Shown piece by piece: positions 8,395-26,037 of a stretch of DNA of 64,000 nucleotides; positions within the stretch are counted from its first letter, which is position 1; each line of letters starts with the position of its first letter. The DNA is taken from contig NZ_VFPG01000001.1 of NCBI RefSeq assembly GCF_006716565.1, positions 5,766,001-5,830,000 of the forward strand. The letters are read 5' to 3'. Position numbers and translations under genes: made by a program. The notes under the pieces are model-generated. The model had not been told where the DNA came from, ran no database searches, and saw only the letters and a program-made list of their open reading frames with translations. Source of the stretch: Nocardia bhagyanarayanae. Lineage in GTDB: Bacteria > Actinomycetota > Actinomycetes > Mycobacteriales > Mycobacteriaceae.

Positions 8395-9753
8395 CTATCG
8401 CGCTCGGCTCAGGCTGGCCAGTACGGCCTTCGCCGCTCGCTCGCCCGACGTAGCCGCGTCGGCGAGCGACGGCAGGTCGAGTTGGTAGTCGCCGGCGAGG
8501 TAGATGTTGTCGAGCGGGTCGCGCAATGTCGGAAGGGACTTGCGCCGACCTGGCGCCCAGAACGGCACGACCCGGCGGTGCCTGCGCAGGATGCCCTCTC
8601 CCAGTTTGCCTTTCAGCTCGGGCAGCACGGTGATCAGGTCGTTCGCGAAGCGCGACACGATCTGCTCGTCGGGCAGGTCGAGCAACGCGTCGGCCTTGCC
8701 GCCACCCGCGAAACAGGCCAGGGCGCCGCCCGGCTTGCGGTCGCTTCCGGTGCGCAGCGCCGCGGCGTGGTTGAACACCGCCTGGAACGACAGCTGCGGC
8801 GTGGAGATGACGAAGTTGTCGTCCCAGCGTTGCGGCCCGACTTCGTCGGTGAAGAAACCGACGACCACGTAGCGGCCGTAGGTGATGTCGTTGAACGCGT
8901 TGCGGTACTGCTGCGGGAGGTCCGGGACGATCCGCTCGGTGACATCGGCGGGGGCGGTCACGATCGCGCGCTCGGCCCGCAACCGCGCCGGCCGGCCATT
9001 GTCGAGATAGTCGACGACTACGCCGTCGCCGTCGCGCCGCACCGATTGCACCGCAGCGTTCAGCCGGATGCGGGCACCGAGCTCTTCGGTCAGCACGTCG
9101 GTCAGCGTCTGGTTACCACCGTCGGGCAGCGAGAAGTTCGGGACCTTCGCCGGGTCGGTCAGCGCGATGCCGATCGAGGTGACGAGCTGGGTGGCGGCGG
9201 TCTCGTTCAGGTCGCATCCCATCCACTGCGCCGACCACGACCGGACGATGGTGGCGGCCAGTTCCGAGCGGACACCGTTCAGCAGATACGACGCGAGCTT
9301 GGTGTCGAGCCGGGCGCGGACCCGCTGAGCGAAACGGCTTTCCGATTCGAGGAACGGTGCGGCCGCGAGGATGCGCGCGCCGACGATGGCAAGACCGAGA
9401 CGGTCCATCATTGTCATCCGCGTGCGGAACATGAGGGCGAAGGGATTCGAGGTGTCGACCGTCGCACCGTTGAGGTGCAGCGCGACGCTCTTGCCCGCGA
9501 GCGAGCCCATCTCGATACCGTGCCGGTCGAGGGCATCGATCAGCGTGCCGGTGCCCTCGGTGAATTGAGTGCCGACGTTGATCCAGTAGTCGCCCTGCCG
9601 GACGGTGTCGACGCGTCCGCCCGTGCGATCGGTGGATTCGAGCACGACGACCTCGGCCGCGGGTGCGAGAGTGGTCGCCGCAGTCAGGCCCGCCATTCCG
9701 GCGCCGACGACGACCACCTCGGTGGTCTCTTCCTGTATTTCCTGCGTTGTCAT
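8395..9753 (-). CDS. Flavin-containing monoamine oxidase
   Basis: A 452-residue FAD enzyme of the amine oxidase family. The N-terminal dinucleotide fold is clear: VVVVGAGMAGL at about residue 13, then ESTDRTGGRVDTV, the usual GG-R signature of flavin amine oxidases. The C-terminus ends with YLAGDYQLDLPSLADAATSGERAA, matching the second FAD-binding segment. The start is ATG 9753, with AGGAG five bases upstream. It would oxidise an amine to imine, then aldehyde or ketone plus ammonia, making hydrogen peroxide. It sits 44 bases downstream of a membrane protein gene and shares that gene's operator-controlled promoter. The substrate is not known. Confidence 0.85.
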   Translation of the reverse strand: MTTQEIQEETTEVVVVGAGMAGLTAATTLAPAAEVVVLESTDRTGGRVDTVRQGDYWINVGTQFTEGTGTLIDALDRHGIEMGSLAGKSVALHLNGATVDTSNPFALMFRTRMTMMDRLGLAIVGARILAAAPFLESESRFAQRVRARLDTKLASYLLNGVRSELAATIVRSWSAQWMGCDLNETAATQLVTSIGIALTDPAKVPNFSLPDGGNQTLTDVLTEELGARIRLNAAVQSVRRDGDGVVVDYLDNGRPARLRAERAIVTAPADVTERIVPDLPQQYRNAFNDITYGRYVVVGFFTDEVGPQRWDDNFVISTPQLSFQAVFNHAAALRTGSDRKPGGALACFAGGGKADALLDLPDEQIVSRFANDLITVLPELKGKLGEGILRRHRRVVPFWAPGRRKSLPTLRDPLDNIYLAGDYQLDLPSLADAATSGERAAKAVLASLSRAR

Positions 9754-9796
9754 AGAAACTCCTGACTCGAGATCGATCGTGGGAAGGTCCGGCGAA

Positions 9797-10492
9797 TCAG
9801 GCCGTGACCGGCGCGCCGCCGCTGACCGCCTGCGCGTCGACGCGCTTGTTGTAGGCGTCGAAGGCCCGGTACGCGCGGTAGTACACGCACATCTGCAGGC
9901 CCCACGTGGACAGCGCGAGGATGTAGAAGATCGTGTGCTCGGCGTCGTCGCCCGGGATGTGGACGAAGTCGTAGATCGAGGCGATGACGAAGGCGCAGGC
10001 GGTGGCGACGGCGGCCCACACGGCGTGCCCGCGCTCATCGATATCCCACAGGCGCTTGACGAAGTAGCCCAGGAAGATCGTGGTGAGCACATTGACCACG
10101 ATGAAGAAGACCTTGGCGGGGGTGCCGATGTTCTCGGAGTAGCCGAGCAGGATCCAGCCCGCCACGGCCGCGAGGGCGAACGCGCCGATGTCCATCGCCA
10201 CCGACGGCTTGTACCGGTGGGTGACCTGCATCAGTCCGAGGACCAGGATCAGCGTGATACCGACGGACCGGGAGAACGCGTCGAGGAAAGACGCGGCGGT
10301 GTACATCGGGCTGTCGTGGCCTGCCTTGACGATGCCGTAGACCAGGAAGTTCGAGCCCGACGTCGCCACGATGATCCACTCGAGGCCGAGCAGGTAATTC
10401 TTGTAGTTCCGGATGAACAGGATCCCGTAGGTGAATCCGACGGCGATCATCCAGATGTCCGCGACCGCGAAAAGCAGTTCCTTGATGGACAT
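9797..10492 (-). CDS. Seven-helix membrane protein of unknown function in the amine regulon
   Basis: A 231-residue protein with about seven hydrophobic segments and little else. I do not recognise the family. ATG 10492 is preceded by AAGGAG at a good distance, which is better than the in-frame ATG 24 bases upstream. It is the first gene of a two-gene unit with the amine oxidase and lies directly behind a promoter whose -35 box is inside the 23-bp regulon operator. Context suggests substrate uptake, sensing or membrane anchoring for the oxidase. This is inference only. Confidence 0.7.
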   Translation of the reverse strand: MSIKELLFAVADIWMIAVGFTYGILFIRNYKNYLLGLEWIIVATSGSNFLVYGIVKAGHDSPMYTAASFLDAFSRSVGITLILVLGLMQVTHRYKPSVAMDIGAFALAAVAGWILLGYSENIGTPAKVFFIVVNVLTTIFLGYFVKRLWDIDERGHAVWAAVATACAFVIASIYDFVHIPGDDAEHTIFYILALSTWGLQMCVYYRAYRAFDAYNKRVDAQAVSGGAPVTA

Positions 10493-10669
10493 GATCTTCT
10501 CCTTGAAAGGTGACACCCGCCGACCAGCGGCAATGGGTCGTTTCGTCAGCGCTGCCGAACGATCGAGAACAGGTGGTCGTCTCGCTTCGGCGATTCATGG
10601 GTTCGACATCTGCCGTCGAGCGGGGTGCGCGTAGCCCCGACGCAGAGCTGGGGTGTGATGCCTGTCATA

Positions 10670-10708
10670 ACGGTACCGGGAGTGAGTCATATGATCAAGG
10701 CAATTGAC
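10670..10708 (-). promoter_or_regulatory. Promoter and operator A (membrane protein/amine oxidase unit)
   Basis: On the minus strand, TTGATC (10698-10693), 17 bases, then TACCGT (10675-10670) make a -35/-10 pair. The -35 lies inside the inverted repeat GTCAnnTG-N7-CAnnTGAC at 10686-10708. The same promoter and operator geometry recurs at 19421-19459, so a repressor would block both in the same way. Confidence 0.7.
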
Positions 10709-10911
10709 CCACTAATTCTCGACATGTCGATCAGCCGACCGGGCCACGGTCGTGGTAGGGCGCCCGAACGCACAACCGCCGAACCACAGCGTGCGCGGGT
10801 TCGGCGGTGCGGTGCATCCCGACCTGATCGTCGGCATCTGTCTATATCGGATGACTATGTTCGTGAGAGCACTCGGCCGGCCGAGGCGAGCCGATACAGA
10901 CTTTCCACGCG

Positions 10912-10959
10912 TCACGCCGGCCGTCGACGGCGAGCGCCATTCCTCGACGGCCGGCGTGA
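10912..10959 (-). terminator. Terminator of the long catabolic operon
   Basis: A perfect 16-bp stem (10912-10927 with 10944-10959), 16-base loop, begins 13 bases past the stop of the FAD oxidoreductase gene on the minus strand. A second 11-bp stem at 10775-10808 could serve as a backup. Confidence 0.75.
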
Positions 10960-10972
10960 ACCGGTGCGGTGA

Positions 10973-12271
10973 TTACTTCCTGAGCGCGGCCAAACGGTCG
11001 GCGGCGCGGTCCGCGAGCCAACCCAGATACAGCGCGGGATTACCGACGAAGCTGGGCCAGAACCGCTTGCCGCCGTGCCAGATCGCCTCCAAGTCCTCGT
11101 GCCGCGGCGCGCCGGTGACGTGGTCGGCCAGCATATGGCCCACGTACTGCGCCTGGGCGAAGCCGTGGCCGTTGCAGGCGAGCGAGTAGAGCACGTTGTC
11201 GGAGGCTTCCCCCGCGACGGGGAGCCACGTGGAACTCATGCCGATCCAGCCGCCCCAAGCTCGCTGCGGCTCGATATCCCGCAGGCCAGGGAAGCGATCG
11301 TGAAAGCCGCGGACGAGGTCGTCGGCGACGTGCGGCGCGGGGGTGCGATCCGGCAGCGGGTTGCGGCCCGCCTGCACTCGGCGCGTGCCGAACACGATGG
11401 TGCCCCGCGGCGTGACGCGGTAGCTCTCCAGGATCATGTGCAGCGTGACCATGGGGGCCCGGCTGGTCCAGCCGATCTCGTCGAGCCGCTCGGGCGCGAT
11501 GGGTTCGGTTTCGACCAGAGAGGTCCACACCGGGGTGGCGAGGTGCTTGGGGGCGAGGGGCAGTCCGTTGCTCGCGGCATTGGTGGTCAGCAGAGCCTTG
11601 CGAGCCCTGATCTTTCCGCGCGGAGTCTCGACGACGACACCGCCGCCGACGTCGGCGATGTCGCGTGCGGGAGTGGACTCGTAGACACGCACACCCGCAG
11701 CGATCGTCGCGGCGCGCAGACCGAGCGCGAACTTGCCCGGATTCACCGTGCCGCCCACGCCCTCGCGGATGCCACCGAGGAAGCCCTCCGGCAGACCTGC
11801 CTCGGGGCCTTCGACCCATTCGCCCGACGATCCGGCCTCGGCCAGGACCTTCGCGTTGCGGCGCGCGTGCCGCAACTGCCCCTTCGACACCGCGGCCATC
11901 ACGATGCCCTCCTGCCGATAATCGCAGTCGATCGCGTGGCGCTCGATCGCCTCCTCGGCGAAATACACCGCGTGCTCGGCGTAGCGATACAGCTCGCGCA
12001 AGCGCTCACGCGAGAGCAGGAATCCCAGCAATTCCGGATCGGCGGCGACCGAGTTCGTGATGTATCCGGCGTTGCGCGAGGTGGCGCCCCAGCCGAGGGT
12101 CTTCGCCTCGAGCAGTACGACGTCGACGCCCTTCTCGGCGAGGCGGAGTGCGGCCGACATGCCGCCGCCACCGCCGCCGATCACCACGACATCGCAGTCG
12201 ATGTCACCGGTCAGCGGCGGTTCGACTGTCGTGGGTTGACCGGCCCAACCGGTGTCGTGGATCAACTCCAT
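10973..12271 (-). CDS. DAO-type FAD-dependent amine/amino-acid oxidoreductase
   Basis: A 432-residue enzyme of the D-amino-acid oxidase superfamily. The FAD-binding fold reads VVVIGGGGGGMSAALRLAEKG, followed by WGATSRNAGYI, a pattern typical of PuuB-like (gamma-glutamylputrescine oxidase) and related deaminating oxidases. The C-terminal LYSLACNGHGFAQAQYVGHMLAD segment is the usual second FAD contact. With a glutamine-synthetase-like ligase and a gamma-glutamyl hydrolase in the same regulon, oxidation of a gamma-glutamylated amine is plausible. It is the last gene of the minus-strand operon that begins with the acyl-CoA ligase. Its start lies six bases beyond the stop of the hotdog gene. Confidence 0.85.
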   Translation of the reverse strand: MELIHDTGWAGQPTTVEPPLTGDIDCDVVVIGGGGGGMSAALRLAEKGVDVVLLEAKTLGWGATSRNAGYITNSVAADPELLGFLLSRERLRELYRYAEHAVYFAEEAIERHAIDCDYRQEGIVMAAVSKGQLRHARRNAKVLAEAGSSGEWVEGPEAGLPEGFLGGIREGVGGTVNPGKFALGLRAATIAAGVRVYESTPARDIADVGGGVVVETPRGKIRARKALLTTNAASNGLPLAPKHLATPVWTSLVETEPIAPERLDEIGWTSRAPMVTLHMILESYRVTPRGTIVFGTRRVQAGRNPLPDRTPAPHVADDLVRGFHDRFPGLRDIEPQRAWGGWIGMSSTWLPVAGEASDNVLYSLACNGHGFAQAQYVGHMLADHVTGAPRHEDLEAIWHGGKRFWPSFVGNPALYLGWLADRAADRLAALRK

Positions 12272-12276
12272 GGCGC

Positions 12277-12651
12277 CTACTCCGTTCCGTCCGCGGGGAT
12301 GACCGCGGTGCCGCGAGCACGAACCGCGACCAGGGGAGGGTCCAGGACCTGCGCGCGACCCGTGTCATCGGAGCCACGACAGATCACCCGAAGCTCGAAA
12401 TCGACTGTGCGGCTTCGGTTTCCCTTCTTCACCAGGGTGGCCTCGGCCTCCACGACGTCGCCGCCGCGGACCGGAGCGAGGAATTCGACCGACGAGTAGC
12501 CGGCGAACAGGCCCTCGTGTCCGTCCATTTCGATCGCCAGATTGGTGCCGACATCGCCGAACAGCTTCAGGGCGTAGGCGCCGTCGACCAAATTACCGGC
12601 GTAGTGCGCGTCGGAGAAGGCGACGTACCGCCGGTGGACTGCCTTGCTCAT
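12277..12651 (-). CDS. Hotdog-fold protein resembling 3-aminobutyryl-CoA ammonia-lyase
   Basis: A 124-residue hotdog protein. The block DAHYAGNLVDGAYALKLFGD, then DGHEGLFAGY, VEFLAPVRGGD and KKGNRSR strongly recall Kal, the 3-aminobutyryl-CoA ammonia-lyase of lysine fermentation, which releases ammonia from a beta-aminoacyl-CoA to give an enoyl-CoA. That recognition is from memory of the family; a thioesterase or dehydratase role is possible. ATG 12651 overlaps the BVMO stop as ATGA, and a GGAG precedes it. An ammonia-lyase beside an enoyl-CoA hydratase would fit removal of nitrogen at the CoA-ester stage. Confidence 0.7.
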   Translation of the reverse strand: MSKAVHRRYVAFSDAHYAGNLVDGAYALKLFGDVGTNLAIEMDGHEGLFAGYSSVEFLAPVRGGDVVEAEATLVKKGNRSRTVDFELRVICRGSDDTGRAQVLDPPLVAVRARGTAVIPADGTE

Positions 12652-14312
12652 GCGATCTCCTCGTGAATCGGGCCGAGTGTGCGCGACTGCGCTTCGCCGT
12701 CGAGGGCGACGCCGGGGTAGCCCCGCTTGGCGATCTCGGTGCACATGCGGCGGTATTTGCCGACACCACCCACGTAACCCATGAAGGTGTTGGGCTTGCC
12801 TTCGATGTTGGAGCCCCGATACCAGGAGTCGGTGGTCGCGTACAGCGTCTGCGCGACGGTTCCCTCGGTGATGTCGACCCACTCCTGCTGTGCCTCGGGG
12901 GTGGCCTCGATCACCGTGGCGCCGTTGTCGCGGGCGTGCTCGATGAGGTCGGCGATCCAGTCGACGGCCTGCTCGATCGTCACCACCACATTGCTGGCCA
13001 GCGCGGGACTGAGCGGTCCGCCGACCATGAAGAAATTGGGGAAGTCGGCGGCCATGATCCCGAGGTAGGAGCGGATACCGTCGCCCCAGGCCTCCTGCAG
13101 CTTCTCGCCGGACGCCCCGGTGAGACCGAGCCCGTACAGCGGGCCGGTGAAGGCGTCGAACCCGATCGCGAGCACGATGGCGTCCACCTCGTAGGAGCCC
13201 TTCGAGGTGACGATCGCGTTCGCGGTCATCGTCTCGATCGTCTCCTCACGCAGCGACACCAGCGACACGTTCGGGCGGTTGTAGGTCTCGTAGTAGTCGG
13301 TGCCGAAGACGCTGCGCTTGGCGCCCAGCGGGTGGTACTTGGGCACCAGCAGTTCCGCGGTGACCGGGTCCTTCACGATCTCGCGGATCTTGTCGTGGAT
13401 GAATTCCGACGCGGTCCGGTTCGCCTCGGCGTCGAAGAGCAGGTCGGCGAACTCGGCGCCGACGCCCTGGAAGCCGCTGCGCTCGTAGGCCTCCTCGTAG
13501 CGCCGTTTGCGCTCCTCGTCCGAGACGTCGAAGGCCCGGTCGGTGACGGGGCGATCGGGGATGCCGCCGGGTGAGTGCCTGCATTCCTCACGGATGGCCA
13601 GGTAGTCGTCCTTGACGGCGGCGACCTGGTCCGGGGAGAGTTCGGCGTTGCGCGCGGGCATCACGTAGTTCGGGGTGCGCTGGAACACCGTCAGGTGCTC
13701 GGCGACCTCGGCGATGAGCGGAATGGCCTGCACGCCGGAAGACCCGGTGCCGATCACGGCGACGCGCTTGCCCGCGAGATCGTCGAGGGAGATGTTCCAC
13801 CGGCTCGTCGACACCTTCGTACCGGCGAAGTTCGACAGGCCGGGCACGTCGAAGTCCTTCGGGGTGGACAGGCCGCCCGCACCCGAGATCAGGTAGCGGC
13901 TGCGCCGGGTCTCCCCGTTGTCGAGCCGCACCTCCCACAGGCTGTCTGCGGCGTTCCAGGTCGAGGCCACCACCCGGGTGTTGAAGGTGAAGTGCTTGCG
14001 CAGGTCGAAGCGGTCGGCGACGTGCTCGATATAGCTGAGGATCTCGGCCTGCGGGGCGAACCGCTGGCTCCACGTCCACTCCTGCTGGAGCGCCTCGTCG
14101 AACGAGTACGAGTAGTAGATGCTCTCGACGTCACAGCGCGCGCCCGGATAGGTGTTCCAGAACCAGGTGCCGCCGACGCTGGGCCCGGCTTCGAAGCCCG
14201 CGAAGGTCCAGCCCGCTGTCGTCAGCCGGTGCGAGAGGTAGATGCCGGTGAAGCCGGCGCCGACACCGATGACGTCGACAACGCCGGGATCGACAGTGGA
14301 GGTGGAGTTCAT
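12648..14312 (-). CDS. Type I Baeyer-Villiger-like flavin monooxygenase (first copy)
   Basis: A 554-residue FAD/NADPH monooxygenase of the cyclohexanone monooxygenase group. Visible are the FAD site GVGAGFTGIYL, the GGTWFWNTYPGARCDVES block, the NADPH site IGTGSSGVQAIP, and the AKRS-GTDYYETYNRPNV segment that carries the catalytic arginine in known BVMOs. The BVMO fingerprint FxGxxxHxxxW is present at residues 162-172 but with Ser168 in place of histidine. The reaction expected is ketone to ester or lactone. The start is ATG 14312, with only a weak GAAAG upstream. It is very similar to the copy at 24382-26037 and overlaps the next gene by ATGA. Confidence 0.87.
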   Translation of the reverse strand: MNSTSTVDPGVVDVIGVGAGFTGIYLSHRLTTAGWTFAGFEAGPSVGGTWFWNTYPGARCDVESIYYSYSFDEALQQEWTWSQRFAPQAEILSYIEHVADRFDLRKHFTFNTRVVASTWNAADSLWEVRLDNGETRRSRYLISGAGGLSTPKDFDVPGLSNFAGTKVSTSRWNISLDDLAGKRVAVIGTGSSGVQAIPLIAEVAEHLTVFQRTPNYVMPARNAELSPDQVAAVKDDYLAIREECRHSPGGIPDRPVTDRAFDVSDEERKRRYEEAYERSGFQGVGAEFADLLFDAEANRTASEFIHDKIREIVKDPVTAELLVPKYHPLGAKRSVFGTDYYETYNRPNVSLVSLREETIETMTANAIVTSKGSYEVDAIVLAIGFDAFTGPLYGLGLTGASGEKLQEAWGDGIRSYLGIMAADFPNFFMVGGPLSPALASNVVVTIEQAVDWIADLIEHARDNGATVIEATPEAQQEWVDITEGTVAQTLYATTDSWYRGSNIEGKPNTFMGYVGGVGKYRRMCTEIAKRGYPGVALDGEAQSRTLGPIHEEIA

Positions 14313-14343: not shown

Positions 14344-15801
14344 TTACAGGGGAAGATCGGGAGAATCGACGCCGACCACGCGGTCGCCGCAGAACACCCG
14401 GACGGACTCACCGGGGGCGTGACCGCCGATTCCCGAAGTGCCCCAGAAGCTTTGGGCCGAGCCGTCGGCCAAGTCGGCGACCTTGGCGCCGTTCACGCGC
14501 ACCTCGCCGGACAGCACCCGGGATCCGACCTCGATGGCGCGGTCCAGGTCGCTGCCGAACACGTACGCGTCCAGACCCGACGGGTTGGCGTTGGCCACGC
14601 GCAGTGCGTCCTCGTCGGACTCCACGGCGTGCAGGGTGACGAGCGGGCCGAACAACTCGGCGGTCGCCACCGACGCGTCGACTCCCGAAGCGATGGTGGG
14701 TGAAAGGAAGAACCCGTCGAGCCCGGGGAGCTTCGCGGGCTGATGGATGGTCGCGCCCTTGGCCCGCAGCTCGTCGATCCGGCTTCGCAGCGTGGCGAAA
14801 TGCGGGGCGTTCGAGATCGGGCCCAGCTGGGTGTCCTCGTCCAGCGAGTGCCCGACCTCGATGCCGGCGATGCGATCGAGCAGCGCGTCGAGGAGCGGCT
14901 CCACCAGACTCTTGTGCGCCAGCACCTTTCCGGGGCCCTCGCACCACTGACCGTTGAGCTTGGTCATTCCCTCGAGGATGCCGTCGGCCGCGACGTCGAT
15001 GTCGGCGTCGTCCAGCACCAGAGCCGGGTTGTTGCCACCGAGCTCGAGCTGGAGCACCTTGAAGTCCTCCGCGGCCGCGCGGGCGATCGCGCGACCGGCG
15101 TTCGGGCCGCCGGTGAACGAGACGATCTTCACCCGGTGATCGCCGGTGATCGCCGCGCCCACATCGCCCGCACCGTGAACGAGCTGCAGCGCACCGTCGG
15201 GCAACCCGGCCTTGACGAAGCATTCGACGATGATCTGGGCGCTGCTCGGCGCGTGCTCCGACGGTTTGAGGATGACGGGGCAACCGGCGGCCAACGCGCT
15301 CACCATCTTGGCGGCGGGGATGAAACTGGGGCCGTTCCACGGGGTGAGGATCGCCGCGGGACCCCACGGCACCTTGTACAGCCGCACGTCGCGGCCACCG
15401 GCCTCGAGCGCGGTGCGACGCGGGATGGCGCGCAGCTCCGCGGCCGCCGCGCGGATCCGGTGCGGGAGGAACTGCGCGACCAGCCGAGCCTTCGCGATCG
15501 GGACGCCGCTGGTGAGGGCATCGGTGCGGGCGATGTCCTCGATCCGGGTCTCCACGAGGTCGGCCGCGCGCTCGATCATCGCCGCGCGTTCCTCGCTCGC
15601 CGCGTCGTCCCAGCGTTCGAAGCCGTAGGACCGCTCGGCATGCCGCAGGGCACGCTCCACGTCGTCCGGGCTGGTGGTGACGGCGCGGTGGACGGGTTGG
15701 CCGGTGTTGGGGTCGAGATTCCACGCGTCCGGGATCGTCCGGCACTCGGACCATTCGTCGGCGATGTAGTTGATCGGTTGGGGCAGTTGCGGATTCGACA
15801 T
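14344..15801 (-). CDS. NAD(P)-dependent aldehyde dehydrogenase
   Basis: A 485-residue aldehyde dehydrogenase with all landmarks: TPWN (oxyanion asparagine), KPSEHAPSS (cofactor lysine), FTGGPNAGR loop, LELGGNNP with the general-base glutamate, and the nucleophilic cysteine in GQWCEGPGK. It would oxidise the aldehyde made by the neighbouring alcohol dehydrogenase or amine oxidase to a carboxylate ready for the CoA ligase. It sits within the minus-strand operon, 34 bases from the upstream alcohol dehydrogenase and 31 from the downstream BVMO start. Confidence 0.92.
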   Translation of the reverse strand: MSNPQLPQPINYIADEWSECRTIPDAWNLDPNTGQPVHRAVTTSPDDVERALRHAERSYGFERWDDAASEERAAMIERAADLVETRIEDIARTDALTSGVPIAKARLVAQFLPHRIRAAAAELRAIPRRTALEAGGRDVRLYKVPWGPAAILTPWNGPSFIPAAKMVSALAAGCPVILKPSEHAPSSAQIIVECFVKAGLPDGALQLVHGAGDVGAAITGDHRVKIVSFTGGPNAGRAIARAAAEDFKVLQLELGGNNPALVLDDADIDVAADGILEGMTKLNGQWCEGPGKVLAHKSLVEPLLDALLDRIAGIEVGHSLDEDTQLGPISNAPHFATLRSRIDELRAKGATIHQPAKLPGLDGFFLSPTIASGVDASVATAELFGPLVTLHAVESDEDALRVANANPSGLDAYVFGSDLDRAIEVGSRVLSGEVRVNGAKVADLADGSAQSFWGTSGIGGHAPGESVRVFCGDRVVGVDSPDLPL

Positions 15802-15835
15802 CAGGGGCTCCTTCGGTGCTCGAACAGGGAGGGGG

Positions 15836-16930: not shown

Positions 16931-16944
16931 CATCGTCTCCGATC

Positions 16945-19420: not shown

Positions 19421-19459
19421 ACGGTAGCGAAACTGGGTCAAATGATCAAGGCAAATGAC
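19421..19459 (-). promoter_or_regulatory. Promoter and operator B (seven-gene catabolic operon)
   Basis: On the minus strand TTGATC (19449-19444), 17 bases, TACCGT (19426-19421). The inverted repeat GTCAnnTG-N7-CAnnTGAC spans 19437-19459 and covers the -35 box. The core between the half sites, ATCAAGG, is identical to operator A. The divergent TetR gene starts 111 bases away. Confidence 0.75.
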
Positions 19460-19569: not shown

Positions 19570-20250
19570 ATGGCTCGCATTCCCGCCGCCGAACGTCGCA
19601 CCGAATTGGTGGCGGCGGCCGTGCGCATGATCGCCGCCCACGGCGTGGACGGCGCCACCACACGCCGCATCGCGCAGGAGGCGAACGCCCCGCTGGCCAC
19701 GCTGCACTACTGCTTCGCCACGAAGGAGGCACTGTTCGCGGCGGTCTACGAGTACGTCGCCGGGCAGTATCGAGAAGTGTTGTTGCGAAGCGATGTCCAC
19801 GGCGACGTCGCGACCACCGCGCGTGGCCTGTTGCGCGGCGTGATGGAGTGGTACCTGGCGAATCCGGACTTCGGCGCCGCGATCATCGAGCTGATCAGCT
19901 GGGCCCAGCGTCAGGAGGGCGAGCAGGCCGAGATGGTGTACAGCGAGGCGTACGGGACCACGCGGCCGATCCTCGAGGCCGCCGCGACCGCCGCGGGTCA
20001 GACGATCGACTCGAATACCGTCGACGCGCTGACCTACATCGTGTCCGCGTTGTCCGACGGATTCGCGCTCAACTGGCTGGTGTTCAGCGACCGTACAGCG
20101 GCGCAGGCGCAGGTCGAGCTCACCCTCGGCGTGCTCGACGCCTGGATGGCCGCCAACCTCGGCGCTGCCTCCGCGGCGCCGGCCCCGGAACCGAAGACTC
20201 CGCCCGCGGAAACCATGCGTTCGCTCGTGTCCTGGGTGAGCGCGCGTTGA
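19570..20250 (+). CDS. TetR-family regulator, probable repressor of the catabolic island
   Basis: A 226-residue TetR protein with the N-terminal helix-turn-helix at about residues 8-55 (ATTRRIAQEANAPLATLHYCF is the recognition region, given in part). The C-terminal ligand domain is not specific enough to name a ligand. A strong ribosome-binding site GGAGG stands six bases before ATG 19570. The gene is divergent from the acyl-CoA ligase operon and next to operator B, so it is the best candidate to bind the 23-bp repeat found at four sites. No copy of that repeat lies directly over its own start. Confidence 0.85.
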   Translation: MARIPAAERRTELVAAAVRMIAAHGVDGATTRRIAQEANAPLATLHYCFATKEALFAAVYEYVAGQYREVLLRSDVHGDVATTARGLLRGVMEWYLANPDFGAAIIELISWAQRQEGEQAEMVYSEAYGTTRPILEAAATAAGQTIDSNTVDALTYIVSALSDGFALNWLVFSDRTAAQAQVELTLGVLDAWMAANLGAASAAPAPEPKTPPAETMRSLVSWVSAR

Positions 20251-20320: not shown

Positions 20321-21085
20321 TCAGCGCCGCTCGGCGGCTGCTTCGACGAGCCAGCGCAGCGCACCGTCGTCGCTTTCCATCCACTCGGGATGCCACTGCA
20401 CCCCGAGTACCGCGGCACCGGGGAGCTCGATGCTCTCGGCGACACCATCTGCGGTGCGACCGGTGACCACCAGCCCGTCCCCGCAGACATCGACTGCCTG
20501 GTGGTGCCACGAATTGGTCACCAGCCGATCGCCGAACACCTTCTGGGCGATCGTCCCCGCATCGAAGGTGACGGCATGCTCCGGGTCGCCGTCCGACAGC
20601 GGCCCCGTCGACATGAGGTGCTCGATCGGCCCGGTCGGCAGGTCGGGAATCAGCGTGCCGCCCAGAGTCACATTGAGCACCTGCATGCCGCGGCACACGC
20701 CGAGCAGCGGGATCTGCCGCTCCAGCGCCACCCGGGTCAACGCGATCTCGAACTCGTCCCGGCTGGGATCGTGGACGGAGGGGTCGGCGACCGGATCGAT
20801 CTCGCTGACCACCGACTCGTCGCCGCCCCAGCAGCTCGGATGCACGTCCTGACCACCGGTGATCACCACACCCGACAGCCAGTCACCCAGGTCCGCCGGA
20901 TCGGCGTCGTAGGGCAGATTCACCGGCACACCGCCCGCGCGGGTGATCCGCTCCGCGAAATCGGCGAAGAAGGCGTCGGTGAGACGCCGGCTGTACCCGG
21001 GGTGGCTGCCTTGGATCAGCCCCATCCTGAACCGCCTGCCCGTGAGCCCGATCAGCGGCTTCGCGGTGGTCGAGCGCGCGGTCAC
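20321..21085 (-). CDS. Gamma-glutamyl-amide hydrolase (PuuD-like class I amidotransferase fold)
   Basis: A 254-residue peptidase C26 protein. The nucleophile elbow GVCRGMQVLNV and the catalytic His/Glu in VQWHPEWM are intact, as in gamma-glutamyl-gamma-aminobutyrate hydrolase PuuD. It should cleave a gamma-glutamyl amide to glutamate plus the free amine or amino acid. GTG 21085 overlaps the stop of the ligase gene as GTGA, so the two are coupled. Together with the ligase this forms the activation and release arms of a gamma-glutamylation route. Confidence 0.85.
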   Translation of the reverse strand: MTARSTTAKPLIGLTGRRFRMGLIQGSHPGYSRRLTDAFFADFAERITRAGGVPVNLPYDADPADLGDWLSGVVITGGQDVHPSCWGGDESVVSEIDPVADPSVHDPSRDEFEIALTRVALERQIPLLGVCRGMQVLNVTLGGTLIPDLPTGPIEHLMSTGPLSDGDPEHAVTFDAGTIAQKVFGDRLVTNSWHHQAVDVCGDGLVVTGRTADGVAESIELPGAAVLGVQWHPEWMESDDGALRWLVEAAAERR

Positions 21086-22437
21086 GGGAACTCGAAGTAG
21101 CGCGTGGACTCCCACTCCGACAGCTCGGCGAACGGGTCGCCGCCGGTCGTGTGGAACTGCATCCATTCCCAGCGTCGCGTGCCGACCCAGTAGTCGACGA
21201 ACTCGTCACCGAGCTGCTCGCGCAGGATCAGATCCGACTCGAGCGCATCGGCCGCCTTGGTGATGGTGTCGGGCAGCCGTTCCAGGTCGGGGGCGCACCA
21301 GGCCATGTCGCTGATGGGGTCGGCCGGTTCGAGTTTGCCGTCGATCCCGGCGATCACGCCCGCCAGGATCGTCGCGACCGCGAGGTACAGGTTGGCGTCG
21401 GCGCCCGGAACGCGGTATTCGAGACGGGAGTACTTCGGGTGACCGACCACCGCGCGCACCGCGGTCGTCTTGTTGGCGATGCCCCAGGTCACCGTGGTGG
21501 GCGGTCCGCTCAGGTCGACCAGGCGACGGAAGGAGGTGATCTGCGGCAGCATGACCGAGGTCGCGCCGCGCATCGTCGCGAGCAACCCGGCGACCGCGTG
21601 CCGCATGGTGTCCGACGGCCCGTCGGCGGCGTAGAACGCGTTGACGCCGTCGCGCTGCAGTGACAGGTTGACGTGCGAGGCCTGGCCGTAGCCTGCGGTC
21701 GGCTTGGCCATGAAGGTGACGGTGTGGCCGAGTTCGAAGGCCACCTCGCGCATCACCTGCCTGGCGCGGGCCCAGTTGTCGCACACCGAGATCGGGTCGG
21801 CGGGAACGAGATTGAGTTCGACCTGACCGGCCGCGTCCTCGTCGCTCCACGCCTCCCACTCGATGCCGATCTGCTCGAGCCGGCGCGCGACCGCCGACAT
21901 GTAGTCGACCCAGTCCTTCGACTTCGCCAGGTTGTAGGCGGTACCCGCCGAGCCGCCGAGGGGGGTGAGATCGCGATAGCCCTTGGCCCTGGCCTCGTGC
22001 ACCGACTCCTGGAAGAGGGTGGCTTCGATCTCGACCGCGATGGTCGCGGTGAAACCACGGGTGGCGAGCCGCTCGACCATCGCGCGCGCGAGATTGCGCG
22101 GACAGGTGCCGATCGGGGTGCCGTCGGGCTGCCAGTAGTCACCGATCACCGACTGGACACCGGGCGCCCATTGCACCAGCGTCGAGAGGTCGGGCCGGAA
22201 CTGCAGGTCGGCGAGATGACCGCGCCAGGCGGGGTAGGCGAAGCCGAGGGTCGGCGCGTTGCCGAGGTCGAGGCCGAAGAGCAGGTCGGCCATCGCGAAA
22301 CCCGATTCCGCGCACGCGGCGAACTTCGCGGGCGCGACGTTCTTGCCGTGGAAGGAGCCGTCGTGGTTGGTGGACTCGATCCGGACAGTGTGCACGTCGG
22401 CCTCGAGAGCCGTTGCGGTGGTGGCGATTTCAGACAT
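21082..22437 (-). CDS. Glutamine-synthetase-like gamma-glutamylamine ligase
   Basis: A 451-residue member of the glutamine synthetase superfamily of the PuuA/aniline-ligase kind: ATP-dependent joining of glutamate to an amine. The TFMAKP motif is present. The usual GSGMHxHxSL that follows is altered to GQASHVNLSL, keeping the first histidine but losing the glycine-rich turn and the second histidine. VEIEATLF holds the glutamates expected at the metal site. The change suggests a substrate other than ammonia. It overlaps the upstream gene by eight bases and the downstream hydrolase by four. Confidence 0.82.
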   Translation of the reverse strand: MSEIATTATALEADVHTVRIESTNHDGSFHGKNVAPAKFAACAESGFAMADLLFGLDLGNAPTLGFAYPAWRGHLADLQFRPDLSTLVQWAPGVQSVIGDYWQPDGTPIGTCPRNLARAMVERLATRGFTATIAVEIEATLFQESVHEARAKGYRDLTPLGGSAGTAYNLAKSKDWVDYMSAVARRLEQIGIEWEAWSDEDAAGQVELNLVPADPISVCDNWARARQVMREVAFELGHTVTFMAKPTAGYGQASHVNLSLQRDGVNAFYAADGPSDTMRHAVAGLLATMRGATSVMLPQITSFRRLVDLSGPPTTVTWGIANKTTAVRAVVGHPKYSRLEYRVPGADANLYLAVATILAGVIAGIDGKLEPADPISDMAWCAPDLERLPDTITKAADALESDLILREQLGDEFVDYWVGTRRWEWMQFHTTGGDPFAELSEWESTRYFEFP

Positions 22438-23092
22438 CGTAACGAACCTTCCAGGATGCGCCGACCAGCACGGACAGCTGCGAGAGAGTGCCGCGTACGC
22501 CGACGAGGCCGGTGGACAGGGCAGCGAGCAGGTCGACCGCGCCAGTGAAGACGGCGGCGAGCAGATCCGGCGGGCCGGCGATGACGTAGTGGGTCTCCCC
22601 CTCGCCGGCGACGACCTGCTCCACGCCGTCGGGACCTTCGACGACGGCGACCAGCATGTCGGGGATGCCGGGGACCGAGCGGGCCTTGTCCCAGAAGCTC
22701 ACCGCGGCGGTCTTCCAGTCCGGCAGCGGCGGTGACAGCAACGCGGTGGCCACACCGAGGAACTCGGGGGCGCCCGCGGGCTCGCCGACCGGGGCGAAGA
22801 ACTGGTTCAGGTCGACGGTGATGTCGAGGTCGGGCTCGACCAGCACTCCGCCCGACACCGCGATCGCGCCGTCGGCGAGGGTGATCGTGGCGGCCTGCGG
22901 GGTGTCGTGGGAGCGGATCGCGATCGCGCCGTGCAGCCCGGCGGGCAGCAGCGAGCTGTCGGCGCGGAGGGAGTCGGTGATGGTCCGGGCGATGAGCCGG
23001 ACGATCGGACTGGCGTCGTCCTCGATACGAATGTCGACCCCGCCGACCGCGTCAGCCCCGCGTGTCGCGGGACCGATCGTCGTTTCGGTCAT
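22430..23092 (-). CDS. Hypothetical protein, possibly SCP2/sterol-carrier-like
   Basis: A 220-residue soluble protein, first gene of the three-gene unit with the glutamine-synthetase-like ligase. The segment ATITLADGAIAVSGG followed by PDLDITVDL resembles the strand pattern of SCP2-type lipid-binding domains, in which a hydrophobic cavity carries acyl-CoAs or sterols. The similarity is weak and I would not name a function. ATG 23092 has AAGGA six bases upstream. The promoter region contains operator C. Confidence 0.55.
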   Translation of the reverse strand: MTETTIGPATRGADAVGGVDIRIEDDASPIVRLIARTITDSLRADSSLLPAGLHGAIAIRSHDTPQAATITLADGAIAVSGGVLVEPDLDITVDLNQFFAPVGEPAGAPEFLGVATALLSPPLPDWKTAAVSFWDKARSVPGIPDMLVAVVEGPDGVEQVVAGEGETHYVIAGPPDLLAAVFTGAVDLLAALSTGLVGVRGTLSQLSVLVGASWKVRYDV

Positions 23093-23172
23093 CTTTCTGT
23101 CCTTTCGATTCGACGAGATCGTGTGCGCGGTACAGCGTCAGCAGCGAATCCCAAACGGAACGTGAACTTATA

Positions 23173-23195
23173 GTCAAATGTCTCAGTCACGTGAC
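23173..23195. promoter_or_regulatory. Operator C between divergent units
   Basis: GTCAAATG-TCTCAGT-CACGTGAC fits the regulon repeat GTCAnnTG-N7-CAnnTGAC exactly. It lies between the ligase unit (minus) and the HSL-type hydrolase (plus). TATGAT at 23196-23201 is a good -10 for the hydrolase, so the operator fills its spacer and -35. Confidence 0.72.
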
Positions 23196-23248
23196 TATGA
23201 TGGTGAGGCACAGATCACTTCTTGTCAACGAGTTGCGAGGTTTCCGAG

Positions 23249-24214
23249 ATGACCGACCACACCCCCGCCTGCTGGGATCTGCTCGACGACCAGGCGAAGG
23301 CCGCCGCCCGGATGATCGCCTACGTAGTGCCGAAACCCCTCCGCGAGCTCGGGCCGGAGCAGGCCAGGGCGCTGCTGAACTCGGCACCGGCCGCCGAGCC
23401 GAGCACACCGCTCGACCACGTCGAACAGCTGACCGTGCCGACCCGCGCGGGTGCGATCCGGGCTCGCCTGTACCGCGCGGACGACACCGGCCGGGACGGC
23501 GGCAACCCGGCCCTGGCCTACCTGCACGGCGGAGGTTTCGTCCTGGGCACTCTGGACGGAGCCGACGAGGTGTGCCGCGCGATCGCCGCCGGATCCGGCT
23601 GGACGGTCGTGTCCCTGGACTACCGCCTGGCGCCCGAGAACCGGTACCCGGCCGCGCTGGAAGACTGCCTCGACGCCTACGCGTGGCTGACCCGGACGGC
23701 ACCGGAACTCGGCATCGATCCGGAACGCATCGCGATCGGCGGCGACTCCGCGGGCGGCAACCTCGCCGCCGCCCTCTGCCTGCACCGACGCGATGCAGAC
23801 CTCCACCTTCCCGTGACCCAAGTGCTCGTCTACCCCGCCGTCGACGGGACATTCACCGCGCCGTCCTGGTCGGAATTCGCCGACGCACCCATGCTGACCG
23901 CCGCGGACGCGCGCTGGTGCTGGGACGCGTACGTCGGGGAGGGACATCGAGGGGACGACCACCTCGCGGCGCCCATGCGCGCCGAGTCGCTGCGCGGCCT
24001 GCCGCCCGCCCTGATCCTGACGGCGGAGGTCGATCCGATCCGCGACGACGCGGAGGCGTACGCCGCACGACTGCGGCGCGAGGGGGTCACCGTCTCGCTG
24101 ACCAGGTATCCCGGCGTCTTCCACGGCTTCTTCACCGAGATCGGTGTGTTCGCGCAGGCCAAGCAGGCGGTCGACGAGGTGTGCCTGCACCTGCGCGAAG
24201 TCGCGCGGGCATAG
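23249..24214 (+). CDS. Alpha/beta hydrolase of the HSL/acetyl-hydrolase family
   Basis: A 321-residue esterase. The oxyanion motif HGGGF, the nucleophile elbow GDSAGG, the acid in EVDPIRDD and the histidine in FHGFF form a complete hormone-sensitive-lipase-type site. It is a good candidate to open the ester or lactone made by the BVMOs. ATG 23249 is preferred; a TTG 27 bases upstream has no better ribosome-binding site. It is divergent from the ligase unit across operator C and precedes BVMO copy two, which has its own operator. Confidence 0.9.
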   Translation: MTDHTPACWDLLDDQAKAAARMIAYVVPKPLRELGPEQARALLNSAPAAEPSTPLDHVEQLTVPTRAGAIRARLYRADDTGRDGGNPALAYLHGGGFVLGTLDGADEVCRAIAAGSGWTVVSLDYRLAPENRYPAALEDCLDAYAWLTRTAPELGIDPERIAIGGDSAGGNLAAALCLHRRDADLHLPVTQVLVYPAVDGTFTAPSWSEFADAPMLTAADARWCWDAYVGEGHRGDDHLAAPMRAESLRGLPPALILTAEVDPIRDDAEAYAARLRREGVTVSLTRYPGVFHGFFTEIGVFAQAKQAVDEVCLHLREVARA

Positions 24215-24243
24215 CCGCGCACCCGCGGCGTCCGCGCGCTCTA

Positions 24244-24299
24244 TTGACGTCCGCGGAGCCGCGACGCTACTTTCAAGTCAAGTGACATAGTCAGTTGAT
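24244..24299 (+). promoter_or_regulatory. Promoter and operator D (second BVMO)
   Basis: TTGACG (24244-24249), 18 bases, TACTTT (24268-24273). The operator GTCAAGTG-ACATAGT-CAGTTGAT follows at 24277-24299, overlapping the expected transcription start. It matches the regulon repeat except for the last base. Confidence 0.68.
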
Positions 24300-24381
24300 C
24301 ACGATCGAGCCTCCCTCGCTCTCAGCACCGACCGTTCACCTGCGCGATGCTCACGCATCCGGACACCATGAAGGCAGTCCC

Positions 24382-26037
24382 ATGACACACCCCACTACCG
24401 AACCCCTCGACGTCATCTGTGTCGGAGCCGGTTTCTCCGGCCTGTACGTCGCGTACCAGGCGAGCCGGAAGAACTGGTCGTTCGCCGGGTTCGAGACCGC
24501 GCCGGATGTCGGCGGCACCTGGTTCTGGAACACCTACCCCGGCGCCCGCTGCGATGTCGAGAGCATCTACTACTCCTACTCGTTCAGCGAGGAGCTGCAG
24601 CAGGAGTGGACATGGAGCGAGCGCTTCGCCCCGCAGGCGGAGATCCTGCGCTACATCAATCACGTGGCGGACCGTTTCGACCTGCGTAAGTACTTCACCT
24701 TCAACACCAAGGTGACCTCGGCGCGGTGGCTGCCCGACGAACACCTCTGGGAGGTTTCGCTCGATTCCGGCGCGGTCCACCACTGCCGGTACCTGATCTC
24801 GGGCGCGGGCGGCCTGTCGACACCGAAGGACTTCGACGTTCCCGGGATCGAGAACTTCACCGGAATCAAGGTCTCCACCAGCCGCTGGACCATCCCGCTG
24901 GAAGAACTGGCCGGCAAGCGCGTCGCCGTGATCGGCACCGGTTCCTCTGCGGTGCAAGCCATTCCGCACATCGCCGCCGTCGCCGAACACCTCACCGTCT
25001 TCCAGCGCACACCGAACTACGTCTTCCCCGCGCGCAACGCCCCGCTGACGTCCGACTTCGTCGACGAGATCAAGAGCAACTACGCCGCGATCCGCGAGGA
25101 GTGCCGCCACTCCCCCGGCGGCATCCCGGACCGCCCGGTGGATACCAAAGCCTTCGACGTCAGCGACGAGGAACGCCTGCGCCGCTACGAGGAAGCCTAC
25201 GAGCGCAGCGGTTTCCAGGGCGTGGGCGCCGAGTTCGCCGACCTGCTCATCGACCCCGAGGCGAACAAGACCGCGACGGACTTCATGTGCGGCAAGATCC
25301 GCGAGATCGTCCACGACCCGAAAACCGCCGCGCTGCTCGAGCCGCGTTTCCATCCACTCGGCGCCAAGCGCAGCGTCTTCGGCACCGACTACTACGAGAC
25401 CTTCAACCGCCCGAACGTCTCGCTCGTCTCGCTGCGCGAGGAGCCCATCGAGACGATGACGGCCGACAGCATCGTCACCAGCGCGGGCGCCTACGACGTC
25501 GACGCGATCGTCCTCGGCATCGGATTCGACGCGTTCACCGGCCCGCTGTTCGGCCTGAACCTCTCGACCCCGCAGACCGGCACCCTGCGGCAGGCGTGGA
25601 GCGAGGGCGTTCGCACCTACCTCGGCATGATGACCGCGGGCTTCCCCAACTTCTTCATGGTCGGCGGCCCGCAGAGCCCGGCCATCGTCAGCAATGTGCT
25701 CGTCACGATCGAGCAGGCGGTCGACTGGATCACCGACCTGATCGACCACGCCCGCGGCAAGGGCGCCGAGGTCATCGAGGCGACGACCGAGGCACAGGAC
25801 GAGTGGGTGACCATCACCGAGGACATCGTCGGCAAAACTCTGTACGCCACCACCGACTCCTGGTACCGCGGCTCCAACGTGACCGGCAAGGTGTCCACCT
25901 TCCTCGGCTACGTGGGCGGAGTCGGCAAATACCGCAGGATGTGCACCGAAATCGCGCGCCGCGGCTACCCCGGCGTGCAGATCGACGGTGAAGCCGTCGA
26001 CCGCAAGATCGGCCGGATCGACGAGGAAATCGACTGA
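24382..26037 (+). CDS. Type I Baeyer-Villiger-like flavin monooxygenase (second copy)
   Basis: A 551-residue paralogue of the BVMO at 12648-14312, alike over its full length. FAD site CVGAGFSGLYV, GGTWFWNTYPGARCDVES, NADPH site IGTGSSAVQAIP and AKRSVFGTDYYETFNRPNV are intact. The fingerprint carries the same substitution, Ser165 where histidine is expected in FxGxxxHxxxW. ATG 24382 has AAGG eight bases upstream; an in-frame ATG at 24295 would lie inside operator D and is rejected. It is transcribed alone from operator D. Confidence 0.87.
   Translation: MTHPTTEPLDVICVGAGFSGLYVAYQASRKNWSFAGFETAPDVGGTWFWNTYPGARCDVESIYYSYSFSEELQQEWTWSERFAPQAEILRYINHVADRFDLRKYFTFNTKVTSARWLPDEHLWEVSLDSGAVHHCRYLISGAGGLSTPKDFDVPGIENFTGIKVSTSRWTIPLEELAGKRVAVIGTGSSAVQAIPHIAAVAEHLTVFQRTPNYVFPARNAPLTSDFVDEIKSNYAAIREECRHSPGGIPDRPVDTKAFDVSDEERLRRYEEAYERSGFQGVGAEFADLLIDPEANKTATDFMCGKIREIVHDPKTAALLEPRFHPLGAKRSVFGTDYYETFNRPNVSLVSLREEPIETMTADSIVTSAGAYDVDAIVLGIGFDAFTGPLFGLNLSTPQTGTLRQAWSEGVRTYLGMMTAGFPNFFMVGGPQSPAIVSNVLVTIEQAVDWITDLIDHARGKGAEVIEATTEAQDEWVTITEDIVGKTLYATTDSWYRGSNVTGKVSTFLGYVGGVGKYRRMCTEIARRGYPGVQIDGEAVDRKIGRIDEEID

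What the first reader, a model, noticed from the sequence alone, without database searches (positions are those of the whole stretch)
8395..26037. Catabolic island that could link gamma-glutamyl amine activation to Baeyer-Villiger oxidation
In one 17.6-kb island sit an amine oxidase, a DAO-type FAD oxidase, a glutamine-synthetase-like ligase, a gamma-glutamyl hydrolase, two BVMOs, an HSL-type esterase, an alcohol and an aldehyde dehydrogenase, an acyl-CoA ligase, an enoyl-CoA hydratase and a Kal-like ammonia-lyase. Each family's reaction is established. Together they spell amine to ketone to ester/lactone to hydroxy-acid to diacid or acid to CoA ester. Cyclohexylamine-type routes through cyclohexanone and caprolactone are known, but I know of no described pathway that pairs gamma-glutamylation with BVMO steps. 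The link between the families is my inference.
Basis: partly seen in the sequence, partly recalled or inferred. Interest (0 to 1): 0.82.

Follow-up and report, generated by a model that had tools for sequence, protein, structure and literature searches.

The report
Co-regulated amine and ketone breakdown island
A soil-bacterial gene island, found in many related bacteria with a shared DNA switch, appears to tag an amine with glutamate, cut its carbon chain with a Baeyer-Villiger-type enzyme, and then remove the tag; no substrate has been tested.

Summary
In detail: all twelve named genes lie at 8395-26037 in a probable Nocardia, including a Kal-type lyase (12277-12651). The gamma-glutamylation/BVMO link is not chance. 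Of 62 orthologous ligase loci from 14 genera, 61 have a BVMO-type gene within about 15 kb; the other is cut by a contig end. Six further loci agree 6 of 6; 11 ordinary ligase-hydrolase-ALDH loci have none. Three divergent BVMO groups fill the slot. A 23-bp operator matches exactly at only four places in 7.56 Mb, all island promoters, and tracks the TetR gene (57 of 60 loci with it, 0 of 9 without). BVMO and Kal genes overlap by 4 nt in 37 of 39 loci. Best reading: a gamma-glutamyl cap holds an amino-ketone open; BVMO and esterase cut it, ADH/ALDH oxidise the alcohol, the hydrolase frees an amino acid, and acyl-CoA ligase, Kal and ECH finish it. Substrate, order and all reactions are inferred from families; the window's BVMOs lack the signature His.

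The parts
8395..9753 (-). PF01593 flavin amine oxidoreductase (AOX); remote from MAO
   Evidence: best PDB hit E 1.3e-12; orthologues in sister clusters
9797..10492 (-). 7-TM membrane protein (MEM), often near a DAO gene in other loci
   Evidence: no Pfam family above its cut-off; AF2 pLDDT 83.5 with seven helices; no PDB match at E <= 0.001
10686..10708 (.). operator-like site GTCANNTGNNNNNGNCANNTGAY, upstream of MEM-AOX
10973..12271 (-). DAO-type FAD oxidase
   Evidence: PF01266 E 4.4e-55; weak likeness to aminophosphonate and pipecolate oxidases
12277..12651 (-). Kal-like 3-aminobutyryl-CoA ammonia-lyase
   Evidence: NF052388 161.6 bits against cut-off 160; 4HBT domain; 4-nt overlap with BVMO1
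12648..14312 (-). BVMO1, phenylacetone/steroid monooxygenase type
   Evidence: 527 bits to 1w4x; variant fingerprint FAGTKVSTSRWN
14344..15801 (-). aldehyde dehydrogenase
   Evidence: PF00171 E 2.1e-106; ELGG and NGQWC motifs
15836..16930 (-). zinc alcohol dehydrogenase (NDMA-dependent/class I-III like)
   Evidence: zinc motifs
16945..17724 (-). enoyl-CoA hydratase (crotonase) family
   Evidence: PF00378 E 4e-40
17735..19351 (-). AMP-binding acyl-CoA ligase (start 19351, 19405 or 19441 uncertain)
   Evidence: PF00501 E 1.2e-77
19437..19459 (.). operator-like site between the ACL and TetR genes
19570..20250 (+). TetR-family regulator, likely owner of the operators
   Evidence: PF00440; presence tracks the sites
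20321..21088 (-). gamma-glutamyl hydrolase, peptidase C26, PuuD-like (start approximate)
   Evidence: PF07722 E 4.5e-48; GVCRG and VQWHPE; PDB hits incl. PuuD
21082..22437 (-). GS-like ligase, probably a gamma-glutamyl-amide synthetase
22430..23092 (-). tandem SCP2-like protein; 8-nt overlap with the ligase gene
   Evidence: AF2 pLDDT 90.5; Foldseek top hits SCP2; a relative (L081) passes PF02036
23173..23195 (.). operator-like site between SCP2-ligase-hydrolase and HSL
   Evidence: conserved position
23249..24214 (+). HSL-family esterase
   Evidence: PF07859 E 6.6e-74; HGGG and GDSAG
24277..24299 (.). operator-like site upstream of BVMO2
24382..26037 (+). BVMO2, 75% identical to BVMO1

Best explanation
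The island is one co-regulated catabolic pathway (this part likely, above 0.9) in which a gamma-glutamyl group caps an amine so that a Baeyer-Villiger cleavage can be run on a neighbouring ketone (the less certain part). Proposed steps, all inferred from families: (1) AOX/DAO or, in other forms, MAO-like, imine-reductase-like or PhyH enzymes oxidise a hydrophobic, possibly cyclic, amine to an imine that opens to an amino-ketone; (2) the GS-like ligase, perhaps helped by the SCP2-like protein, makes gGlu-NH-(CHR)n-CO-R', which can no longer cyclise; (3) BVMO inserts oxygen, giving an ester; (4) the HSL esterase cuts it; (5) ADH and ALDH oxidise the alcohol to an acid; (6) the PuuD-like hydrolase releases glutamate and an amino acid; (7) in the window's form the acyl-CoA ligase, Kal-type lyase and ECH turn a beta-amino acid into ammonia plus a 3-hydroxyacyl-CoA; in one relative (L151) gabT and SSADH sit beside the module instead, as expected for GABA. 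A TetR protein controls the promoters through the shared 23-bp operator.
For: One pathway: (of 65 loci: BVMO 58, ester hydrolase 60, ADH 62, ALDH 63, gamma-glutamyl hydrolase 62, SCP2 62, ACL 63, ECH 58), with four of the seven BVMO misses filled by longer flanks or genome hits; 9 of 9 loci, six of them not, against 0 of 11 ordinary GS-hydrolase-ALDH loci; 3 of 3 plasmid loci fetched. Reverse test: among 60 genomes, own included, the window-type BVMO occurs 8 times in 5 genomes, each within 12 kb of the ligase. Three divergent BVMO groups (24-32% identical between groups) fill the slot. Co-regulation. Nitrogen kept through BVMO: conserved hydrolase; one-strand gene row BVMO-SCP2-GS-ADH-hydrolase-ALDH in L083, whose ALDH is best matched by PuuC at 526.6 bits (cut-off 850); no DAO or PF01593 oxidase detected in L081-L083, L086, G447, G002. 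End steps: Kal above its curated cut-off and overlapping BVMO by 4 nt in 37 of 39 distinct loci, with two unrelated BVMO groups and in either order; gabT and SSADH beside the module in L151. Non-ammonia ligase.
Against: No substrate or activity is known for any protein. The window's own ALDH is not PuuC-like (best model HpaE 276.3 bits, PuuC 175.1 bits). BVMO1/2 lack the signature His, so their Baeyer-Villiger activity is not certain; this is so for 46 of 47 PAMO-type hits, the 47th gave no motif match. Kal was found in 37 of 62 loci, 40 with longer flanks, but in type III only in L078, not in type IV, and in none of the six out-of-sample loci, so step 7 is not universal. gabT/SSADH at 40% identity or more was seen only in the locus that supplied the queries. 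AOX is too remote to assign to cyclic amines. NCBIfam scores of the ligase are near ties with true GS models. Three of 60 loci with a TetR homologue have no operator at one mismatch (L060, L081, L082). The BVMO-Kal overlap could mean another order of steps. 'Hydrophobic' rests on the SCP2 fold alone.
Confidence: 0.48

Rival explanations
1. One reading: a secondary alkyl or cycloalkyl amine is deaminated to a ketone (AOX/DAO, with or without glutamylation), which follows a Chn-like route BVMO - esterase - ADH - ALDH - acyl-CoA ligase - ECH.
For: All Chn-type families (BVMO, HSL hydrolase, Zn-ADH, ALDH) are present; amine oxidase classes recur (27 of 65 loci), and the AO2 type is related to MAO, putrescine oxidase and cyclohexylamine oxidase.
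Against: Leaves the conserved gamma-glutamyl hydrolase and the Kal lyase without a job; six type IV loci have no detected amine oxidase or DAO; the L083 ALDH is PuuC-like.
Confidence: 0.2
2. The BVMO and esterase remove or detoxify a side chain or by-product while a Puu-like pathway handles a diamine or amino alcohol: two branches of one substrate under one regulator.
For: GS, hydrolase and ALDH are a Puu-like set; 11 control loci show the same trio alone.
Against: BVMO, SCP2, GS, ADH, hydrolase and ALDH form one row on one strand in L083; the BVMO and Kal genes overlap.
Confidence: 0.14
3. A biosynthetic rather than catabolic cluster, making a small nitrogenous signal or natural product.
For: TetR control, an MFS or amino-acid permease next to some loci, patchy distribution (7 of 394 class genomes) and plasmid copies.
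Against: No assembly-line genes among the proteins I scanned (a selection); CoA ligase, lyase, hydratase and, in L151, gabT/SSADH point to breakdown.
Confidence: 0.07
4. Unrelated operons that merely lie side by side.
For: The genome carries about twenty BVMO-like genes (21 matches), so one nearby is not very rare; one of 12 control loci has a 39% BVMO within 16 kb.
Against: Conservation over genera, replacement by unlike BVMOs, shared operator.
Confidence: 0.03

Closest known systems
Puu/GlnA gamma-glutamylation pathways (E. coli puu genes; S. coelicolor GlnA2/GlnA3/GlnA4)
   Same: GS-like ligase, C26 hydrolase, ALDH and (in most type I-III loci) a DAO oxidase; the cap protects the amine until the acid stage. 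Passages of PMC9397018 seen; enzyme roles partly recalled.
   Different: No BVMO, esterase, SCP2-like protein or Kal known to me there; 'Baeyer' and 'monooxygenase' occur 0 times in the main text of that review.
Isopropylamine (Ipu) and aromatic-amine (AtdA, TdnQ, NpaA1) glutamylation routes
   Same: An organic amine is glutamylated before an oxygenase acts; GoaS-type ligases lack the GS Asp50 (PMC11335346, passages seen).
   Different: NpaA1 and AtdA work with dioxygenases, not a BVMO plus esterase (isopropylamine route recalled); 'Baeyer' occurs 0 times in that paper's main text.
Cyclohexanol/cyclohexanone (Chn) and acetone (AcmAB) routes (recalled)
   Same: BVMO, alpha/beta hydrolase, and in Chn Zn-ADH and ALDH.
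   Different: No gamma-glutamyl ligase, hydrolase, SCP2-like protein or Kal (recalled).
Lysine fermentation (Kal, Kce; recalled)
   Same: Kal-type lyase removes ammonia from a beta-aminoacyl-CoA made by cutting an amino-keto acid.
   Different: There an anaerobic CoA-dependent cleavage enzyme makes the cut; here an oxygen-dependent BVMO plus esterase would.

Membership tests
GoaS/PuuA-type gamma-glutamyl-amide synthetase | GS catalytic domain | tested here: met
   PF00120 263.8 bits
GoaS/PuuA-type gamma-glutamyl-amide synthetase | loss of the GS ammonium-site Asp50 motif | tested here: met
   DGSS/DGSA in two own GlnA-type proteins, GNAP in the window protein; placement next to a gap
GoaS/PuuA-type gamma-glutamyl-amide synthetase | curated gamma-glutamylputrescine synthetase model | tested here: not met
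   174.8 bits against a cut-off of 650; type III GS 174.0 and GlnA 172.4 nearly equal
GoaS/PuuA-type gamma-glutamyl-amide synthetase | ligates an organic amine | not testable with these tools
   needs an assay
Type I BVMO | [AG]GxWxxxx[YF]P[GM]xxxD and two GxGxx[GA] motifs | tested here: met
   both window proteins
Type I BVMO | FxGxxxHxxxW[PD] fingerprint | tested here: not met
   FAGTKVSTSRWN and FTGIKVSTSRWT in the window; canonical in the five type II-IV proteins
Type I BVMO | full-length homology to a solved BVMO | tested here: met
   phenylacetone monooxygenase 1w4x, 527 and 531 bits
3-aminobutyryl-CoA ammonia-lyase (Kal) | curated model NF052388 | tested here: met
   161.6 bits, cut-off 160, a narrow pass; substrate not tested
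Puu pathway | PuuA, PuuB, PuuC and PuuD equivalents together | tested here: inconclusive
   GS, DAO, ALDH and hydrolase present, but the PuuA, PuuC and PuuD models are not reached (174.8/650, 175.1/850, 83.5/266) and no PuuB model was listed
SCP2-like protein (22430-23092) | SCP2 fold | tested here: met
   Foldseek: 14 of the top 15 hits described as SCP2-type, one at E <= 0.001, whole-chain TM about 0.3 (two domains); window protein itself below the Pfam cut-off (13.6 against 21.3)
Chn cyclic-ketone pathway | BVMO, lactone hydrolase, hydroxy-acid ADH, ALDH | tested here: inconclusive
   families present; substrate untested

The most novel reading that the evidence does not exclude
A new mode of amine breakdown: gamma-glutamylation works as an open-chain lock on amino-ketones that would otherwise close to cyclic imines (2-substituted pyrrolines or piperideines, from alkaloid-like amines), so that a Baeyer-Villiger enzyme can cut the carbon chain. 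The end module matches the amino acid produced: Kal and ECH for beta-amino acids, gabT and SSADH for GABA. The window-type BVMOs, with Ser for the signature His, would be enzymes adapted to gamma-glutamylated ketones.
Probability: 0.27. Interest if true: 0.88.

Novelty: new variant of a known kind. Interest (0 to 1): 0.74.

Why it matters
Type I BVMOs such as phenylacetone monooxygenase are much used as catalysts, and their natural roles are often unclear (recalled). Here a clade of them has a conserved genomic home, a regulator, an operator and a set of partner enzymes, so its natural substrate can be sought directly. If the lock model holds, it adds carbon-carbon cleavage to gamma-glutamylation pathways and gives bacteria a route to amines that hide as cyclic imines.

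Tried and rejected
The Kal gene (12277-12651) was missed by my gene caller and found later.

My first version of the mechanism (note) used acyl-CoA ligase and ECH for the acyl half of the ester; the Kal gene makes the amino half the better use. Both stay possible.

A strand-swapped ORF (15770-17506 +) was rejected in favour of ADH and ECH on the minus strand. The 7-TM protein could not be named: the Foldseek hits shown are assorted GPCR-type proteins, none at E <= 0.001. Literature searches for a matching pathway listed none that I could recognise; only listings and starts of abstracts were seen, apart from the passages of four papers found by term.

A GABA end module was sought in the other loci with L151's gabT and SSADH: no further hit at 40% identity or more within the held flanks. 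Operators in loci without TetR: none at one mismatch.

Limits of the counts. treat related loci as separate, so the Fisher value (3.9e-9) overstates independence. One search counted tblastn hits at E <= 1e-12 over 80 residues or more, mostly within 10-kb flanks. L088 and L089 (26% ligase, Ensifer) are in its 65 loci but not in the 62 orthologous ones; L070 is cut by a contig end. In one search, n = 69 = 62 loci + L096 + six fetched loci, and a 'TetR' is any hit to the window's TetR at E <= 1e-10 (down to 35% identity). One search printed 42 rows; L058 twice, and L090 and L106 are longer fetches of L026 and L049, hence 39 distinct loci, the window among them. One search counted some genes twice. 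In one search only the best 23 candidates of a genome were scored. The operator pattern was written by eye from the four window sites, so only its absence elsewhere and its presence in other loci are tests.


Full report
What is there. The window lies in a 7.56-Mb genome of two contigs. The closest named relatives of its ligase are Nocardia neocaledoniensis, coubleae, ignorata and cyriacigeorgica at 95-97%, so the host is taken to be a Nocardia. The genes tested on either side (guaB1 and two CNNM genes before, three genes after 26 kb) have no hit in the related loci. Between them sits a 17.6-kb island. On the minus strand from the middle outwards: acyl-CoA ligase, ECH, Zn-ADH, ALDH, BVMO1, Kal, DAO, then a 7-TM protein and a PF01593 oxidase. 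Next to it are a TetR gene (+), SCP2-like protein - ligase - hydrolase (-), and HSL esterase and BVMO2 (+). Motifs expected of hydrolase, esterase, ALDH, ADH and acyl-CoA ligase are present.

Conservation. A scan of genome contigs with the ligase gave 64 loci; 62 are taken as orthologues (52-97% identity) in Nocardia, Rhodococcus, Antrihabitans, Hoyosella, Streptomyces, Saccharopolyspora, Skermania, Gordonia, Haloechinothrix, Prauserella, Amycolatopsis, Nocardioides, Mycobacterium and Tsukamurella. Of 65 loci compared (the 62, two Ensifer loci with a 26% ligase, and L096), within the flanks held BVMO is found in 58, ester hydrolase in 60, ALDH in 63, ADH in 62, ECH in 58, acyl-CoA ligase in 63, gamma-glutamyl hydrolase in 62, SCP2-like in 62, TetR in 55, DAO in 44, 7-TM protein in 35, amine oxidase in 27. 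The seven without a BVMO were L041, L060, L061, L070, L088, L089 and L096. Longer flanks or genome hits supply it for L041, L060, L061 and L096. L070 ends at a contig end; L088 and L089 are not orthologues. So 61 of 62 orthologous loci have one.

Tests outside that sample. A search of 394 genomes drawn across the class found the ligase in 7, own included. All nine hold BVMO, ester hydrolase, ALDH, ADH, gamma-glutamyl hydrolase and SCP2-like genes. Twelve control loci around other GS-like genes (10 relatives, 2 in the own genome) differ. Eleven show the ordinary GS-hydrolase-ALDH trio with no BVMO, esterase, ADH or SCP2 hit. One (own C2 copy, 26% ligase) has a 39% BVMO and a 31% HSL more than 11 kb away, but no hydrolase, ADH or SCP2. 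One control (G008) was cut short by its contig end. Of four plasmid records with the ligase I fetched three (Rhodococcus qingshengii, R. gordoniae, Tsukamurella); all carry BVMO-type proteins, the one in R. qingshengii with FEGAAFHSAKWR, not the canonical end. The reverse holds too: with the BVMO2 query at E <= 1e-170, 5 of 60 genomes (own included) hold 8 copies, all within 12 kb of a ligase orthologue on the same contig, although the own genome has 21 BVMO-like matches.

Four forms share the core. Type I (the window): PAMO-like BVMO with HSL. Type II (mostly Amycolatopsis): another BVMO with a 38-42% HSL. Type III: a related BVMO with a different alpha/beta hydrolase, an amine oxidase (MAO-like or AOX), an amino-acid permease in most and often a PucR regulator. 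Type IV (L081-L083, L086, and by content G447, G002, L150, L151): BVMOs of types c-e and PhyH oxygenases; no DAO or PF01593 oxidase was detected in L081-L083, L086, G447 or G002. PhyH relatives at about 30% also occur in six type I loci. PAMO-type, type c and the b/d/e group are 24-32% identical to one another, and b, d and e are 41-55%, so the slot has been refilled by unlike enzymes.

Co-regulation. By eye, four upstream regions of the island share GTCANNTGNNNNNGNCANNTGAY. In the whole genome exact matches occur at four places, all in the island: upstream of MEM-AOX, between the acyl-CoA ligase and TetR genes, between the SCP2 and HSL genes, and upstream of BVMO2; the backward pattern has none. 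In the window at up to two mismatches there are 9 matches, both strands counted, at 5 places, against 2.3 expected. In R. koreensis L032 at one mismatch there are 4 matches at 3 places against 0.04 expected. In 23 control stretches (368 kb) there are none even at one mismatch. Over 69 loci, 57 of 60 with a TetR homologue have at least one site at one mismatch or less and 0 of 9 without one do (L060, L081 and L082 are the three exceptions); 54 sites lie upstream of an SCP2-like gene.

The single proteins. SCP2-like: AlphaFold2 on 31 sequences (pLDDT 90.5), Foldseek top hits sterol carrier protein 2. 7-TM protein: no family. BVMO1: matched to phenylacetone monooxygenase over nearly the full length, but the signature His is Ser and the Pro/Asp is Asn, Thr in BVMO2. 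Of 47 PAMO-type hits scanned, some the same gene twice, 46 have this Ser and one gave no motif match. Kal: just above the curated cut-off. One search printed 42 BVMO/Kal rows; after removing repeats there are 39 distinct loci, of which 37 have a 4-nt overlap: BVMO first with PAMO-type enzymes (33), Kal first with the type II enzyme (4). Kal was found in 37 of the 62 loci (40 with longer flanks) and in none of the six out-of-sample loci. The ligase lacks the DGSS-type motif; loss of Asp50 and other residues is given as a possible reason why GoaS enzymes do not use ammonium (PMC11335346, passage). Its NCBIfam scores do not decide between GS types.

How it most likely works. A gamma-glutamyl hydrolase is needed only if the nitrogen is still amide-bound to the carbon product; a Kal lyase only if a beta-aminoacyl-CoA arises. 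Both are hard to place if the amine is first turned into a ketone. The L083 row BVMO-SCP2-ligase-ADH-hydrolase-ALDH, with an ALDH best matched by PuuC (526.6 bits, cut-off 850 not reached), reads as: cap, cut, oxidise, uncap. In R. gordoniae L151 the same module sits beside gabT and a succinate-semialdehyde dehydrogenase, as expected if the uncapped product there is GABA; no other locus showed these genes. I therefore propose that gamma-glutamylation locks an amino-ketone open for Baeyer-Villiger cleavage. Imine-reductase-like proteins in several type III and IV loci (RedAm-like domain above its cut-off in L083, just below in L073) hint at cyclic imines. Shown: gene content, conservation, shared pattern, overlaps. 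Inferred: every reaction, the order, the regulator's role and the substrate.

Novelty. No listing in the held library describes gamma-glutamylation paired with a BVMO in catabolism, nor a BVMO paired with Kal (15 of 3,249 papers listed). A review of polyamine and ethanolamine metabolism and the 1-naphthylamine paper do not contain 'Baeyer' in their main text. Each enzyme family is known; the combination, its regulation and its spread look new, so I call it a new variant of gamma-glutamylation pathways.

Noticed in passing
window 12648-14312, 24382-26037: A clade of PAMO-like flavoproteins carries Ser in place of the BVMO signature His (46 of 47 hits scanned, some genes counted twice).
   Followed up: partly
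window 9797-10492: Conserved 7-TM protein of no known family, often near the DAO oxidase; could be a transporter or an electron partner.
   Followed up: partly
L083:3803-4744, L073:17332-18210, L150:23638-24513: Imine-reductase/RedAm-like proteins with, by eye, Asp or Asn where beta-hydroxyacid dehydrogenases have Lys (residue roles recalled).
   Followed up: partly
L061:8153-9307: 3-hydroxyisobutyryl-CoA hydrolase-like protein (367.2 bits, cut-off 274) next to the SCP2 gene in Gordonia asplenii; would suit a 3-hydroxypropionyl-CoA end product.
   Followed up: no
L066:6329-7402: A called 357-aa frame beside the type II BVMO gene has no family; it may be spurious.
   Followed up: no
L150, L151, L152: The module lies on large plasmids of Rhodococcus and Tsukamurella, so it may spread between genera.
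   Followed up: partly
window 34151-35407: MPAB/latex-clearing-type oxygenase domain (PF09995) with a possible Tat signal.
   Followed up: no
window 27678-28358: SnoaL-like protein just outside the island, weak hits only.
   Followed up: no
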